From JAYEMH01 sp034717985 [NCBI: Candidatus Ratteibacteria bacterium] (GTDB lineage Bacteria > CAZDME01 > JAYEMH01): DNA of 10,283 nucleotides. The stretch is from contig JAYEMH010000022.1 of the NCBI GenBank assembly GCA_034717985.1, positions 3,949 to 14,231 on the forward strand, written 5' to 3'. Shown one piece after another: positions 1 to 10,283 of this stretch. Position numbers and translations under genes: made by a program. The notes beneath the pieces are model-generated. The model saw only the letters and a list, made by a program, of their open reading frames with translations. It was not told the origin of the DNA and searched no databases. Within the stretch, counting starts at the first letter, position 1; each line of letters starts with the position of its first letter.

Positions 1-383
1 TTCACAGAGAACTCTTTTGTTTTTTTTGACCCTTTTATTTTTTTATCTATAACGGACAGGTCATGACCTGTCCCTACACATTTTTTTGTTATTTTTCCTC
101 TGTGTCCTCTCTGGTCAATCTTTCTCTGTATTTGTGATATTTTGCCTGCCCCGTACCTAAGCCAAAGGCGAATGGTATCGGGGTTTGTTCTGTGTTCACC
201 TGTGTTTATCTGTGGTTCCTTTCATTTTCTTTTATCTCTTTGTGTCTCTGTGTGCTCTATGGTTATTTTTTATCCTGTAAATCCTGTCAGAAACGTTTTG
301 TTTTTATTTTTGTATTTTCTTTTTCTTCTCTGTGGACTCTGTGGTTAATTCTTTCATGTTTTTTCATGTTACTTTTGACACTA
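1..383. repeat. Intergenic repeat element, copy 1 (left end cut by window edge)
   Basis: This stretch downstream of sufB carries no credible gene. It aligns by eye with 7165-7480: the two share the poly-T tract, the palindrome at 54-73, the TTTGCCTGCCCCG block with the following sequence around 140-205, and the end block CTCTGTGG...TTTCATGTT...TTTGACACTA (about 331-383). Copy 1 has about 110 extra bases (roughly 209-325) that include more CTCTGTG and ATCCTGT motifs. CTCTGTGG/CCACAGAG units recur through the element. The small reading frames inside (for example 142-348) are rich in Phe, Leu and Cys from the T-rich sequence and look spurious. The window start cuts the left terminal inverted repeat. 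Confidence 0.7.
54..77 (+). repeat. REP-like palindrome with CTAC tail
   Basis: GGACAGGTCATGACCTGTCC is a perfect 20-base palindrome followed directly by CTAC, so the opposite strand reads GTAG then the hairpin. The GTAG-hairpin layout is that of REP sequences recognised by RAYT transposases. An identical copy sits at 7242-7265 in the sister repeat element. Confidence 0.75.
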
Positions 384-387
384 CTAC

Positions 388-1599
388 CTATAATCCTTCT
401 CCAACGGGGTAAGTGGCTACCGCCTTATCCACCTCTTTTTGCAGAACTTCGGGCAAACCCATAATGGAGGTATCCAAAAATCCTCTGACAATAGCCGCCT
501 GAGCTTCATCCTGACTGAGACCCCTGGCCATAAGATATTCTATTTCATCCCGGGCAATTTTCCCGACGGCCGCCTCGTGAGACATCTCCACTCCTTTGAC
601 ATTTCCTTCCAGCTCAGGAATAGCATCTATCAGACCTTTCTCAGCCAGCATAAGTCCCCGGCATTCAAGGTGGGCTTTTATTCCCTTTGCCTCCCCGATG
701 AGATGACCCCGGGCAATAATATGCCCGCCGGCGGAAACGGCCCGGGATATTACCTCGGCTCTTGAAGCTTCGGCCTTCAATATTACCCGGGAGCCCACGT
801 CAAGATGCGTCCCCGAAGAGGCAAAAAGAATGGAGTTATACCGCGCCAAAGCACCGCCTCCGACCAATTCCGCCTTAGGACACATCTGTAAGGTTTTTAC
901 CGGCTTGAGGCAGATATAATTTGACAAAAAGGCGCCGCCTTCTTCAACCAGGGTCGCCGTCCTGGGACGGACAGCTACATCTTCGGCCCAGTTATGAATC
1001 ATGGTAAAGGTTAATTTTGCCCCTTTTTTGACATAAAATTCCGAGATGCCGATGTGGAGGCCCCGCCGAACATCACCGGCGGCAGCACAGCCGGTAATCA
1101 CCTCAAGGTCTGAACCCTCCTCGGCAATTATAATATTATGAACGTTCTGAATTATATTATTTTCGTTAATAAACAAACAGGCCTGTAAAGGGTAAACTGT
1201 TTTTACACCGGGAAGAGCCCGCAGGAAATAACCCTGATGCGGCTGTCTCTGTGCCTGTTTGGTAAAATCATCCGCTTCAATTGAAATCACCTTCCAGAAA
1301 TAATTGTTAAGCCACTCATGTTTTTTCAAGGCCTGGCTAATACTCATTACCTCAAGCCCGGGATAAAGACTTTTTGAATGCACAACGCTGTGGTCCATTT
1401 GTAGATAAGTGCCGGAACGCCCTTTTTGTGAGGGGTCTATGCCGGCAGATAACATATTTTCTTTCTGGCCGGAACCAAGCTTTTGCAGGTTTTCCAGGTA
1501 TCCCCAGGACTTAACCTTAGCTTTGTATGATTCAATATTTATTTTACCCGGAGAGGGGGTTCTTGTTTTGGTTTTTTGCTTTTGCATATCACGCACCAT
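388..1599 (-). CDS. sufB: SufB/SufD-family Fe-S cluster assembly scaffold (minimal SufBC type)
   Basis: This is the scaffold subunit that, with the SufC ATPase, builds Fe-S clusters in the cytoplasm. The 403-residue protein is one SufBD beta-helix domain without the long N-terminal region of E. coli SufB, which fits the two-gene minimal SUF type found in many archaea and anaerobes. Family blocks seen are TGCAAAGDVRRGLHIG (about 169-184), KKGAKLTFTMIHNW (191-204), AHLECRGLMLAEKG (309-322), DAIPELEG (325-332) and a C-terminal MSHEAAVGKI (339-348). By eye, Cys313 and Glu342 match the E. coli SufB Cys405 and Glu434 implicated in cluster assembly. The gene follows sufC and overlaps its 3' end by 61 bases. 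The ATG at 1599 has no clear ribosome site, so the ATG at 1587 is equally possible. No separate SufD, SufS, SufU or SufE is present in the window. The family call is firm. The exact start is not. Confidence 0.95.
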   Translation of the reverse strand: MVRDMQKQKTKTRTPSPGKINIESYKAKVKSWGYLENLQKLGSGQKENMLSAGIDPSQKGRSGTYLQMDHSVVHSKSLYPGLEVMSISQALKKHEWLNNYFWKVISIEADDFTKQAQRQPHQGYFLRALPGVKTVYPLQACLFINENNIIQNVHNIIIAEEGSDLEVITGCAAAGDVRRGLHIGISEFYVKKGAKLTFTMIHNWAEDVAVRPRTATLVEEGGAFLSNYICLKPVKTLQMCPKAELVGGGALARYNSILFASSGTHLDVGSRVILKAEASRAEVISRAVSAGGHIIARGHLIGEAKGIKAHLECRGLMLAEKGLIDAIPELEGNVKGVEMSHEAAVGKIARDEIEYLMARGLSQDEAQAAIVRGFLDTSIMGLPEVLQKEVDKAVATYPVGEGL

Positions 1600-2403: not shown

Positions 2404-2427
2404 GGACAAGGCATGCCTTGTCCCTAC
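2404..2427 (+). repeat. REP-like palindrome with CTAC tail, left of the RAYT pseudogene
   Basis: GGACAAGGCATGCCTTGTCC is a perfect palindrome followed by CTAC. It lies just upstream of the sufCB promoter. It differs from the copy at 3066 only at the paired third and eighteenth bases (A-T here, G-C there), so the hairpin is kept. Confidence 0.8.
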
Positions 2428-2534: not shown

Positions 2535-2703
2535 AAAACAAATAAAAATAAATGCCAAAATCATATACCCGTCGAAACACTAATCGAATCCCTCGGCATA
2601 ATTATTCAACGCCAGGGCAATATTTCATAACGATTTGCACAGAAAATCGGCAACAGAATATGTAATAATGCCCAATCATATTCATGGAATAATCAATATT
2701 GCT

Positions 2704-2730
2704 GTAGGGGCGGCTCTATGTAGCCGCCCG
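2704..2730 (-). repeat. REP hairpin inside RAYT frame, left arm of REPIN-like pair
   Basis: The plus strand reads GTAG, then an 8-bp stem GGGCGGCT/AGCCGCCC (written on the minus strand) around the loop ACATAG. It is inverted relative to the copy at 2804-2830. Flanks and loop are identical between the two copies and only three stem base pairs differ. Confidence 0.8.
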
Positions 2731-2803
2731 TTAATAAATCCGTATATCGGCCCGATACAAAATAACAAAAATAATATCATCGGCAACAAAAATCGTATTA
2801 ATG

Positions 2804-2830
2804 CGGGCGAAAACATAGTTTCGCCCCTAC
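2804..2830 (+). repeat. REP hairpin inside RAYT frame, right arm of REPIN-like pair
   Basis: The stem GGGCGAAA/TTTCGCCC encloses the loop ACATAG and is followed by CTAC. With 2704-2730 it forms a 127-base unit with inverted ends GTAGGGGCG and CGCCCCTAC, the architecture called REPIN in other genomes. Confidence 0.8.
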
Positions 2831-3065
2831 AATATGACGGTTTAGGACAATATATATCGTGGTTTAAACGAATGGCAACAAATAAATATATTCGAAATGT
2901 AAAAAATAACAATTGGCGCCCATTCAACAAACGTCTCTGGCAGCGCAATTACCACGACCACATCATACGGAATGACAAATCATTAAATAATATTCGTAAT
3001 TACATAATTACCAACCCGGCAACCTGGAATATGGACGAAAATAATATTAAAAATTATTCTTCAGA

Positions 3066-3089
3066 GGGCAAGGCATGCCTTGCCCCTAC
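3066..3089 (+). repeat. REP-like palindrome with CTAC tail at the RAYT 3' end
   Basis: GGGCAAGGCATGCCTTGCCC is a perfect palindrome followed by CTAC. It encodes the last residues of the RAYT frame (GKACLAPT) just before the stop codon and faces the same way as the copy at 2404. Confidence 0.8.
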
Positions 3090-3090
3090 T

Positions 3091-3150
3091 GCCTAACCAG
3101 GCAACTCAGCGGATCCCGAAGCGTCGGGGCCGCTGAATTTTGTGTTGGAT
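3091..3150 (+). other. Candidate integron attC site (60 bases)
   Basis: GCCTAAC (3091-3097) fits the R'' consensus RYYYAAC and GTTGGAT (3144-3150) fits R' GTTRRRY. Inside them CTCAGCGG (3105-3112) and CCGCTGAA (3130-3137) pair at 7 of 8 positions as L boxes, and the centre CCCGA-AGCG-TCGGG is a compact hairpin. Spacers are 7 and 6 bases and the total length matches classic 59-base elements. The stop codon of the RAYT frame overlaps R'', as is usual in gene cassettes. Weak points are poor outer R''/R' pairing (two wobbles and one mismatch) and no integrase in the window. The hairpin with its following AATTTT could instead be a weak terminator. Confidence 0.4.
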
Positions 3151-3159
3151 GTAAAAAAT

Positions 3160-3193
3160 AAGGAGGACGGTGCAAGATTTATTTTTATTTTAG
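3160..3193 (+). other. Strong ribosome site followed by a seven-codon frame
   Basis: AAGGAGG lies 3 bases before a GTG at 3170 that opens only seven codons before TAG. It sits directly after the attC-like site. It looks like the 5' end of another gene or cassette cut off at the edge of the minus-strand ATP-grasp gene, with which it overlaps. It is probably not functional. Confidence 0.3.
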
Positions 3194-4270
3194 GTGTTTG
3201 AACAATTCCCCTTTATTGTCCAGCCGGGTTAATTCTTTGATCATGCTTCTGGCCAGATTAAAGGTTCTTCGTTTGGGGAAGCCGGGGAAAACATTAACAT
3301 CTACGATATAAACATCTTTAAGATGGCGGTCAAGCACAATGTCTATACCGGCCAATTTTAAATCCAGAGCCCGGGCTGCTTTCAGGGCTGTCTTTTCCGC
3401 TTTGGCCAATAACTTTTTGGGTATGAATTGTAAAAAACCGGGCTCGCCCTTCCCCCCTTGAGAAATATTGGTGGTGATTTCCTGCGGCTGATTTGTCTTT
3501 GGGTAAATATATAGACATTTTTGAAAAAACGTATAAATCCTTAAATCAAACTTCTTTCGCTTGACGATGAGAGAATCAACTGCTTCCTCAATCAGAATAT
3601 CTTTTTTAATCAGCTCTCTTAAAAAAGTCCTGTTTCCGGTAATATCCCTGAAATGCCAACCGTGGTCAGACCGGCGGCTGATAATTCTATCGTCGTGGAA
3701 TTGAAAATTCGTCTGCCAGTTTGACCAGCTAAGATAGGTGATTCCCTTGCCCATAGAGCCATATCTCGGTTTTAAAAAAAGCGAGTCCCCTTTAGAGAGA
3801 AATTTATAAATATCCCTGGTATGGGCAGCCAGATGCCGCCTGGGAACGGGAATTTTGGCCAGGGAAAGCCTGAGCTCAATGAGCCGCTTATCCCGGTACC
3901 GCCCGGATAAAAGCGGCTCATTTATAACCAGGACTTCCTGCCCGGAGAAATTCTTTTTTATGATCTTGTCTATTCTCTTCCAGAAAGACATAAATTTCCG
4001 GTAAAAAACACGGTTGCCGTACATTCCCCGGTAGGATTTGTGTTCAATATTTTTATTCCAATAATTAAACGGAAAGAATAAAAATATGATGACTTTTTTT
4101 GTCCTTATTCTGGGTAGTTTCTCTTGAAGAACCCTGGTATAATTTGCCGTGGCATAATTAAAGCCTTGTCTCTGCAGTAAATGTTTCTCCTTATTGAATT
4201 TTTTATATTCATCATAATCAAGCCTGTCCCCGAAACTTAAAACAGTAATATTTCTTTTTATCTTTTTCAT
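3185..4270 (-). CDS. YheC/YheD-like ATP-grasp enzyme
   Basis: ATP-grasp enzymes use ATP to activate a carboxylate and join it to an amine or thiol. In this 361-residue protein the N-terminal third is lysine- and tyrosine-rich and not recognised. The ATP-grasp fold spans about 130-345: nucleotide loop LKPRYGSMGKG (166-176), the EEAVDS strand (228-233), FDLR (241-244), TTNISQGGKGEP (266-277), LAGIDIVLD (306-314) and the metal-binding strand VDVNVFPGF (323-331), with Asp324 and Asn326 as ligand candidates. The LKPxxGSxGKG, FDLR and TNxSxGG blocks resemble the YheC/YheD coat-associated family of Firmicutes, though no spore context is seen. It follows the dehydrogenase gene by 45 bases with no terminator, so co-transcription is likely. 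The ribosome site is weak. The substrate is unknown. The fold is firm and the subfamily less so. Confidence 0.8.
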   Translation of the reverse strand: MKKIKRNITVLSFGDRLDYDEYKKFNKEKHLLQRQGFNYATANYTRVLQEKLPRIRTKKVIIFLFFPFNYWNKNIEHKSYRGMYGNRVFYRKFMSFWKRIDKIIKKNFSGQEVLVINEPLLSGRYRDKRLIELRLSLAKIPVPRRHLAAHTRDIYKFLSKGDSLFLKPRYGSMGKGITYLSWSNWQTNFQFHDDRIISRRSDHGWHFRDITGNRTFLRELIKKDILIEEAVDSLIVKRKKFDLRIYTFFQKCLYIYPKTNQPQEITTNISQGGKGEPGFLQFIPKKLLAKAEKTALKAARALDLKLAGIDIVLDRHLKDVYIVDVNVFPGFPKRRTFNLARSMIKELTRLDNKGELFKHLK

Positions 4271-7164: not shown

Positions 7165-7480
7165 ACTGTCAAAAATTAACCACAGAGAACACAGAGAACT
7201 TCTTTTCTTTTTTTTGACCCTTTTATTTTTTTATCTATAACGGACAGGTCATGACCTGTCCCTACACATTTTTTATTATTTTTCCTCTGTGGACTCCGTG
7301 GTTACATTCTTTCTCTGTATTTGTGATATTTTGCCTGCCCCGCACCTAAGCCAAAGGCGAATGGTATCAGGGTTTGTCCTGTGTTCACCTGTGTTTATCT
7401 GTGGTTTGTTTTTTTTGTTTTCTTCTCTGTGAACTCTGTGGTTCATTCTTTCATGTTCTTTCATGTTTTATTTGACACTA
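7165..7480. mobile_element. Inverted-repeat-bounded intergenic element, copy 2 (MITE-like)
   Basis: The outer ends ACTGTCAAA (7165-7173) and TTTGACACT (7471-7479) are inverted at 8 of 9 positions. Inside them a 21-base pair of arms (7178-7198 and 7423-7443, AACCACAGAG.../...CTCTGTGGTT) matches at 19 of 21. The body shares the copy-1 blocks and the same REP palindrome. It has no transposase, so it could only move in trans. The small minus-strand frame at 7276-7464 (NHRVHREEN, PQINTGEHR, TTESTEE) is the kind of spurious translation such repeats give. Function is unknown. Confidence 0.65.
7242..7265 (+). repeat. REP-like palindrome with CTAC tail in repeat copy 2
   Basis: GGACAGGTCATGACCTGTCC plus CTAC is identical to 54-77 and lies at the same place in the sister element, so it was present before that element duplicated. 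Confidence 0.75.
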
Positions 7481-7550
7481 CCCCTTAAACTTCTTTAGGG
7501 CATATATATCACTGAATACACCTTAGGCTATTATCTCCGATTCAAAGACC

Positions 7551-7676
7551 AAACTTTAGACATCAGACTTTAGACATCAGACATCAGACTTTAGACTTCA
7601 GACATCAGACATCAGACTTTAGACTTCAGACATCAAACCTTGTCTATTGTTTTTCGTCTTTCGTCTTTTGTCTGTT
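7551..7676. repeat. Heptamer tandem array that reverses orientation
   Basis: Thirteen seven-base units (7551-7641) read AGAC plus a variable triplet, mostly ATC, TTT or TTC, with slightly altered first and last units. From 7642 to 7676 five units read GTCT plus a triplet (one as GTTT), which is the same motif on the other strand. The period is exact throughout. The GTCT arm covers the last codons and stop of the response regulator ending at 7644. It resembles the short tandem heptamer repeats known from cyanobacteria. Nothing recognisable lies in 7481-7550. Confidence 0.9.
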
Positions 7677-10181: not shown

Positions 10182-10185
10182 AAAC

Positions 10186-10283
10186 AGACCACAGACAATA
10201 GACATTAGACAAGAGACAACAGACAATAGGCAAAAGACAGCAGACCACAGACAATAGACAAGAGACAAAAACCAAAAACAAAA
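10186..10283 (+). repeat. Heptamer tandem array, second locus (runs off window end)
   Basis: Fourteen exact seven-base steps, nearly all AGAC plus a triplet (CAC, AAT, ATT, AAG, AAC, AGC, AAA), run to the window edge; the last two decay to AACCAAA and AACAAAA. The AGACCAC-AGACAAT pair recurs eight units later. It is the same motif as at 7551-7676 with different triplets. Confidence 0.9.

What the first reader, a model, noticed from the sequence alone, without database searches (positions are those of the whole stretch)
2552..3096. RAYT pseudogene carrying a REPIN-like pair inside its own reading frame
Two inverted GTAG hairpins (2704-2730, 2804-2830) lie between the HUH motif and the rest of the transposase, and a third forms its last codons, all without breaking the downstream frame. 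The gene appears to have been a target of its own type of element, or to tolerate these palindromes as a linker. Separately, about 35-40 residues are missing upstream with a frameshift.
Basis: partly seen in the sequence, partly recalled or inferred. Interest (0 to 1): 0.68.

Follow-up and report, generated by a model that had tools for sequence, protein, structure and literature searches.

The report
Broken transposase gene carrying REP repeats
A decayed bacterial transposase gene carries, in its own reading frame, a copy of the small hairpin repeat that this kind of transposase is thought to spread; many intact relatives do the same, a habit already described in 2018.

Summary
Observation confirmed. 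Window 2552-3096 is a broken RAYT (REP-associated tyrosine transposase; TnpA-REP) gene. GTAG hairpins lie at 2704-2729 (+), 2805-2830 (-) and 3066-3089 (-); shuffles of this segment give 0.01 on average. Against 61 intact homologues about 109 nt is missing upstream of the HUH motif, shifting the frame.

In-frame linker hairpins are a family trait. With a query lacking the linker, 34 of 46 intact homologues have one, against 2.3 after synonymous-codon shuffling. All 32 separate pairs among 107 genes run +,-; 45 of 49 single + hairpins share one codon phase. In-gene hairpins resemble those beside the same gene (0.78 against 0.61; exact in 15 of 40 genes against 0.19). In one Omnitrophica genome the linker REPIN equals the upstream REPIN apart from one 15-nt unit. 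A stand-alone relative of the window's linker lies outside any RAYT in a related genome.

REPs inside this RAYT subclass, frame kept, were published in 2018 (PMC6006769). Preferred slot, phase and own-flank match are additions I did not see in the parts read. New member of a known kind; moderate interest.

The parts
2552..2650 (+). N-terminal fragment of the RAYT gene (first part of the Y1 HUH domain), in a different frame from the rest
   Evidence: Translation; tblastn match to the N-terminus of a RAYT in G097 (L123, 45% over 31 aa)
2651..2667 (+). Junction of the deletion: 17 nt where most intact homologues have about 126 nt (42 codons); frame changes here
   Evidence: Comparison with 61 homologues
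2635..3096 (+). C-terminal part of the RAYT pseudogene: HUH motif NHIH, linker, WQR, catalytic Y in YIITNP, stop TAA
   Evidence: ORF; NF047646 and PF01797; alignment
2674..2685 (+). HUH motif (NHIH)
   Evidence: Sequence and alignment
2704..2729 (+). REP 1 of the in-gene REPIN, GTAG foot, 8-bp stem; read as VGAALCSRP, starting six codons after the HUH motif
2704..2830 (+). In-gene REPIN: REP 1, interior, REP 2, in frame between HUH and the WQR/Tyr half
   Evidence: stand-alone relative in G198
2805..2830 (-). REP 2 of the in-gene REPIN, inverted; read as GENIVSPL
3066..3089 (-). Third REP, another family (24 nt), encoding the last codons of the gene (GKACLAPT)
   Evidence: same place and phase in a RAYT of G019 (L097)
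2404..2427 (-). REP upstream of the gene, same family and orientation as the third REP (83% over 40 nt)

Best explanation
This is a decayed RAYT gene of the kind called subclass 2.4 (Quentin 2018), which that paper equates with RAYT group 4 of Bertels 2017. Its linker between the HUH half and the tyrosine half holds a REPIN, the inverted pair of GTAG hairpins that such enzymes are thought to bind and spread. Most likely a REPIN entered, or was repeatedly overwritten at, a preferred slot just after the HUH strand; it stayed because it is read without a stop and adds only a flexible surface loop. In intact relatives order and codon phase are nearly constant while the hairpin sequence varies with the REPs of the same locus, so copies are exchanged between gene and genome (single-strand transposition by TnpA-REP, or gene conversion). 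In the window lineage the gene then lost about 109 nt of its N-terminal domain and is very probably inactive; the REPIN remained. Shown: hairpins, deletion, family-wide linker hairpins with order and phase, resemblance to own flanks, whole-REPIN copies in gene and flank. Inferred: direction and mechanism of copying, and loss of activity.
For: Hairpins far above chance. Homologues fetched without the linker: 34 of 46 carry linker hairpins (2.3 after synonymous shuffling); density 4.39/kb in the linker, 0.60/kb in the N part, 0.34/kb in the C part; genes from other RAYT classes 1 of 19. A looser gene locator gives 36 of 48, 50 of 68 (first set) and 1 of 27. 32 of 32 separate pairs are +,-; single + hairpins in phase 0 in 45 of 49; + foot five codons after HUH in 16 of 45 and within 14 in 42 of 45. 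Own-flank match 0.780 against 0.609 (sd 0.013); exact in 15 of 40 against 0.19. Stem pairs change on both sides (28 cells against 7.4 shuffled). In-gene REPIN equal to the upstream REPIN but for a 15-nt unit in L010; single matches of 60 nt or more elsewhere in the locus in 5 further paired genes. The two REPs of one in-gene REPIN recur side by side at six other places in its genome. The window's linker has a stand-alone relative, 86 of 113 nt plus 17 of 17. Linker pLDDT 53-60 against 91-98 for the blocks around it; best solved match 4er8, TnpA-REP with a REP hairpin.
Against: 29 of 107 homologues show no linker hairpin by my scan, so the REPIN is not required. Presence or absence is no more clustered on the gene tree than shuffled labels (25 changes against 25.5), and the tree is poorly resolved (53 of 105 inner branches open), so one ancient insertion is not shown. 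The window's linker pair does not match the window's own flanking REPs, which are another family, and no second copy of it was found in the window; its genome is not held. The homologues are related, so phase and order counts are not independent. 24 of the 32 paired genes gave no other match of 33 nt or more in their locus. In the covariation count two of five measures barely or do not exceed shuffles (pairs changed on both sides 5 against 3.2, 24 of 500 as high; further pair types 9 against 9.0), and its sequences were chosen for having a hairpin.
Confidence: 0.85

Rival explanations
1. The in-gene REPIN is not a tolerated passenger but a working part of the RAYT gene: a site that the enzyme (or another factor) binds in its own gene or mRNA, for self-regulation or as a self-carried substrate. 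Selection then holds order, phase and hairpin.
For: Order and phase are nearly constant across many phyla while the sequence turns over with compensatory stem changes; hairpins are lost under synonymous shuffling.
Against: 29 of 107 genes lack a detected linker hairpin, and 11 of 55 slot-phase GTAGG starts are not followed by a hairpin that passes the scan. Continuous re-insertion or conversion by the genome's own REPINs would give the same picture without selection on function.
Confidence: 0.2
2. Repeated independent insertions: TnpA-REP prefers a target near the end of the HUH strand codons, so unrelated REPINs land in a similar slot and phase.
For: Several phases of the single - hairpin (20, 29, 2) and of double-foot forms (+ foot 14, 6, 1; - foot 9, 11, 1), presence scattered on the tree, and a second slot in the N-terminal domain of some genes (for example L191, L203, L204).
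Against: The single + hairpin phase is nearly fixed (45 of 49) although a second phase is also free of stops; shared ancestry explains this more simply.
Confidence: 0.3
3. The palindromes are a by-product of a conserved linker peptide (VGA...SPL) or of chance.
For: The peptide VGA is common at the slot.
Against: Protein-preserving codon shuffles remove nearly all hairpins (2.3 of 46 genes left against 34); residues within the REP vary widely while pairing is kept.
Confidence: 0.01
4. The deletion and frameshift are an assembly or sequencing fault and the gene is intact.
For: Many of the relatives come from metagenome assemblies (record titles); the window's own reads are not available.
Against: A loss of about 109 nt between otherwise open frames is, from general knowledge, not a typical short-read fault, though it cannot be excluded.
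Confidence: 0.1

Closest known systems
TnpA-REP subclass 2.4 (Quentin et al. 2018, PMC6006769) = RAYT group 4 (Bertels et al. 2017, by Quentin's correspondence)
   Same: HUH motif NHIH, WQ, Y---NP, long variable HuH-Y distance, flanking GTAG REPs, REPs inserted in the gene between HuH and Y with the frame kept, patchy occurrence over many phyla
   Different: The window copy lacks about 109 nt of its N-terminal domain and is a pseudogene; its Y motif is YIITNP, not YIxNNP. Preferred slot and phase, and identity with own flanking REPINs, are measured here; I did not see them in the parts of that paper that I read (abstract and outline; section 12; part 1 of sections 15 and 28; found passages; its supplement was not read).
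REPIN (inverted REP pair; PMC3116915, seen in the search listing only)
   Same: Two GTAG hairpins in inverted order with an interior; a stand-alone relative in another genome
   Different: Lies inside the reading frame of the RAYT gene; interior of 75 nt here
Intragenic GTAG REPs and REPtrons (Di Nocera et al. 2013, PMC3733652; abstract, sections 15 and 16 read)
   Same: REPs inside or overlapping ORFs, REPs overlapping the ends of RAYT genes, GTAG supplying the TAG stop
   Different: There REPs sit in varied host genes, mostly at different sites; here near one slot of the RAYT gene itself
E. coli TnpA-REP, PDB 4ER8
   Same: Best solved match of the model of an intact relative
   Different: 18% identity in that match; Quentin 2018 places the E. 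coli protein in subclass 2.2

Membership tests
TnpA-REP subclass 2.4 / RAYT group 4 | HuH motif NH[IFV]H | tested here: met
   NHIH at 2674-2685
TnpA-REP subclass 2.4 / RAYT group 4 | W motif WQ | tested here: met
   LWQRNYHDH
TnpA-REP subclass 2.4 / RAYT group 4 | Tyrosine motif YIxNNP (class 2 in general: Y---NP) | tested here: inconclusive
   YIITNP: class 2 motif met, the first N of the subclass consensus is T (consensus)
TnpA-REP subclass 2.4 / RAYT group 4 | Large HuH-Y distance (median 88 aa in 2.4) | tested here: met
   About 106 residues (H17 to Y123); median
TnpA-REP subclass 2.4 / RAYT group 4 | GTAG REPs flanking the gene and inserted within it, frame kept | tested here: met
   2404-2427 upstream, 2704-2729 and 2805-2830 in the linker, 3066-3089 at the 3' end
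TnpA-REP subclass 2.4 / RAYT group 4 | Complete Y1 HUH core | tested here: not met
   About 109 nt missing upstream of HUH with a frameshift: a pseudogene descended from the subclass, not a working member
REPIN | Two REPs with GTAG feet in inverted order | tested here: met
   2704-2729 (+) and 2805-2830 (-)
REPIN | Dispersed copies in the same genome | not testable with these tools
   No genome held for the window; one stand-alone relative in G198 among 10 genomes searched

The most novel reading that the evidence does not exclude
In this RAYT subclass the linker REPIN is a standing part of the gene: a preferred slot (just after the HUH strand, codon phase VGA, order + then -) whose hairpin sequence is kept in step with the genome's own REPINs. 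The transposase gene thus carries its cognate substrate inside its reading frame, as a reference copy or as a self-binding regulatory site, which would keep enzyme and repeat matched when the gene moves between phyla.
Probability: 0.25. Interest if true: 0.7.

Novelty: new member of a known kind. Interest (0 to 1): 0.4.

Why it matters
How REPs spread and why RAYTs are kept are open questions. A repeat that sits near one slot and mostly in one codon phase of its own transposase gene, and varies with the repeats beside it, offers a natural record of enzyme-substrate matching and a simple test bed (recode the slot, watch binding and spread). For the window itself the result is ordinary: a decayed member of a described subclass.

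Tried and rejected
Chance palindromes and peptide-driven palindromes were rejected by dinucleotide and synonymous-codon shuffles. NF047646 as a family query brought mostly other RAYT classes (19 usable genes from 60 loci, 1 with a linker hairpin), so it served as a contrast, not as the homologue set. A first pass over the loci with another locator gave 48 of 64. Rows dropped: 15 of 80 loci in the first set, 16 of 60 in the second and 41 of 60 in the contrast set had no ORF with HUH, W and Tyr motifs in order; proteins found twice were counted once (107 genes remain). Loosening the motifs adds a few genes and leaves the fractions. One search queried the genomes of 26 of the 80 loci. The own-flank test used the 40 genes that have both in-linker and flanking hairpins, of 78 with a linker hairpin. 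An imperfect direct repeat (2646-2671 and 2779-2804, 21 of 26) is marginal: the best of 60 shuffles reaches 20. A tree of 108 linker-free rows was too poorly resolved to count insertions. Rfam gave nothing in the window; viral contigs gave no relative; phages none, plasmids three. Four related genomes (G097, G302, G213, G032) had no RAYT match in the stretches fetched around their Suf genes (L119-L122).

Literature: searches. PMC6006769: abstract and outline, section 12, part 1 of sections 15 and 28, and found passages. PMC3733652: abstract, sections 15 and 16. PMC8266576: passages and section 29. PMC8049555: passages. PMC3116915: listing only. Bertels 2017: not read.

Full report
What is there. 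The window carries, on the + strand between a SufC-like ATPase gene (1539-2342, -) and an ATP-grasp-like gene (3185-4270, -) (both names from the look of the sequences, from no call), the remains of a RAYT gene. Its N-terminal part is read from 2552 and the rest from 2635 to the stop at 3094-3096. The second part matches NF047646 (E 8.6e-13, under its cut-off) and Y1_Tnp just under the Pfam cut-off. Against 61 homologues, 42 of which have exactly 42 residues in this stretch, about 109 nt is missing before the HUH motif. HUH, WQR and the catalytic tyrosine motif are present.

Hairpins. The window has six GTAG hairpins, three of them in the gene, where shuffles give 0.2 and 0.01 on average. The linker pair forms an inverted REPIN-like unit of 127 nt. 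The third, of another family, encodes the last residues; a RAYT of the related genome G019 has a REP of the same family at the same place and phase (L097...GKAGLAPTG) and one of that family upstream. Of 8 tails read in the Omnitrophota loci and L198 (11 loci tried; L099 and L198 give the same tail), 3 have a hairpin near the stop (L097, L101, L104). Among the 107 homologues 9 have a hairpin starting between the tyrosine region and the stop; in 6 of these the GTAG starts one base before the stop codon and so supplies the TAG, as Di Nocera 2013 describes in general.

Is it usual? One scan with an alignment of the window protein and three plasmid RAYTs brought 80 loci in many phyla. A second set, not chosen through the linker, was fetched with the C-terminal half only from 193 and 198 genomes of two phyla, in which 34 and 88 genomes had matches (30 loci each). 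In the second set 34 of 46 genes have a linker hairpin, in the first 47 of 65; codon shuffles that keep the protein leave 2.3 and 2.15. Loci of other RAYT classes show 1 of 19. With a looser locator the three figures are 36 of 48, 50 of 68 and 1 of 27. In 107 genes together: 32 separate pairs, all + then -; 20 double-foot; 15 - only; 11 + only; 29 none. Single + hairpins are in phase 0 (read VGA) 45 times and in phase 1 four times; phase 2 would put TAG in frame. Single - hairpins are in phases 0, 1, 2: 20, 29, 2; double-foot forms are more mixed (+ foot 14, 6, 1; - foot 9, 11, 1). The first single + foot lies five codons after HUH in 16 of 45 genes and within 14 codons in 42 of 45; in the window it is six. 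Relatedness makes these counts non-independent, and on a poorly resolved tree presence or absence is no more clustered than shuffled labels (25 changes against 25.5), while the double-foot form is clustered (13 against 18.5).

Cognate match. In 40 genes with both in-linker and flanking hairpins the best identity to the own flank is 0.780 on average, against 0.609 (sd 0.013) when flanks are exchanged; an exact match occurs in 15 of 40 against 0.19. In the Omnitrophica GWF2_43_52 locus (L010, the same gene as L188) the in-gene REPIN of 65 nt equals the upstream REPIN of 80 nt except for one 15-nt unit. Of 32 paired genes, 8 have another match of 33 nt or more to their in-gene REPIN in the locus and 24 have none; single matches of 60 nt or more occur in 5 (L009, L023, L024, L041, L056; L188 shows pieces of 49, 44 and 35 nt). 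Those of L041 lie in or at the edge of its stop-to-stop frame upstream of HUH, those of L009 and L024 at the very start of theirs, those of L023 and L056 outside. In G010 the in-gene REPIN has 27 matches, itself included, and its two REPs lie side by side at six other places. For the window, G198 holds a stand-alone relative of the whole linker (86 of 113 nt plus 17 of 17), with no RAYT reading around it and with an extra stretch within its second hairpin; matches in the other nine genomes searched were shorter. The window pair does not match the window's own flanking REPs, and its own genome is not held.

Stem changes. In 19 + hairpins of 26 nt (the window's and 18 from homologues) all cells are paired and 28 cells differ on both sides against 7.4 in shuffles; the number of pairs changed on both sides (5 against 3.2) and of further pair types (9 against 9.0) is not clearly above shuffles. 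The sequences were chosen for having a hairpin. Without that choice, 44 of 55 slot-phase GTAGG starts are followed by a hairpin, with 21 different stems.

REP load. In 12 Omnitrophota genomes the 6 with a window-type RAYT match have 17, 519, 34, 49, 49 and 35 hits of a REP pattern against 9, 10, 8, 4, 7 and 14 for the reversed pattern; the 6 without have 1, 1, 0, 1, 1 and 0 against 2, 3, 1, 11, 14 and 9. Two of those six do have RAYTs of other kinds by NF047646 (G213, G188). The window's SufB/D-like protein is 76-78% identical to those of G097, G032 and G302, genomes of the phylum of G019, whose locus L059 is titled Candidatus Omnitrophota; the window most likely belongs there. In the stretches fetched around those genes and in G213 the window's next genes beyond SufC and any RAYT gave no match.

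Structure. A model of an intact relative (L005, 65 sequences) is confident on either side (blocks of 91-98) and weak in residues 91-130 (blocks of 53-60), the REPIN-encoded part. The best solved match is 4er8, the REP-bound TnpA-REP (E 3e-6).

Reading. The family-wide picture supports a REPIN that lives near one tolerated slot of its own transposase gene and is exchanged with other copies. Whether it also does something for the enzyme is open. The fact of in-gene REPs in subclass 2.4, in frame between HuH and Y, and the suggestion that they sit in a peripheral loop, are in Quentin 2018. I therefore file the window as a decayed new member of a known kind. Slot, phase and own-flank identity are measurements I did not see in the parts read; the supplement (its Figure S10) was not available to me.

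Noticed in passing
window 13-398 and 7201-7495: Two copies of a long intergenic repeat block (83 nt at 94%, 127 nt at 90%, 102 nt at 78%), each holding the same GTAG hairpin (54-77, 7242-7265).
   Followed up: no
window 7550-7650 and 10185-10283: Short tandem strings of the kind CAGACATCAGACTTTAGACATC.
   Followed up: no
window 2646-2671 and 2779-2804: Imperfect direct repeat (21 of 26), one copy at the deletion junction, the other just before REP 2; marginal against shuffles.
   Followed up: partly
L191, L203, L204, L240: A second REP slot in the N-terminal domain upstream of HUH, with the + REP there and the - REP in the linker.
   Followed up: partly
G019 (1.6 Mb; locus L059): 519 REP-pattern hits against 10 for the control pattern, a very dense REP population in an Omnitrophota genome.
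   Followed up: no
L245 (G198:C29): The stand-alone REPIN has an extra stretch within its second hairpin, perhaps another repeat.
   Followed up: no
L003 739-1236: A RAYT-like ORF on a Monoglobus plasmid record with repeated peptides (GADSISAR, ADMESAP) that look REP-encoded.
   Followed up: no
L222, L053, L012: The interior of the in-gene REPIN can grow into tandem peptide repeats (up to 225 linker residues in L222) with the frame kept.
   Followed up: no
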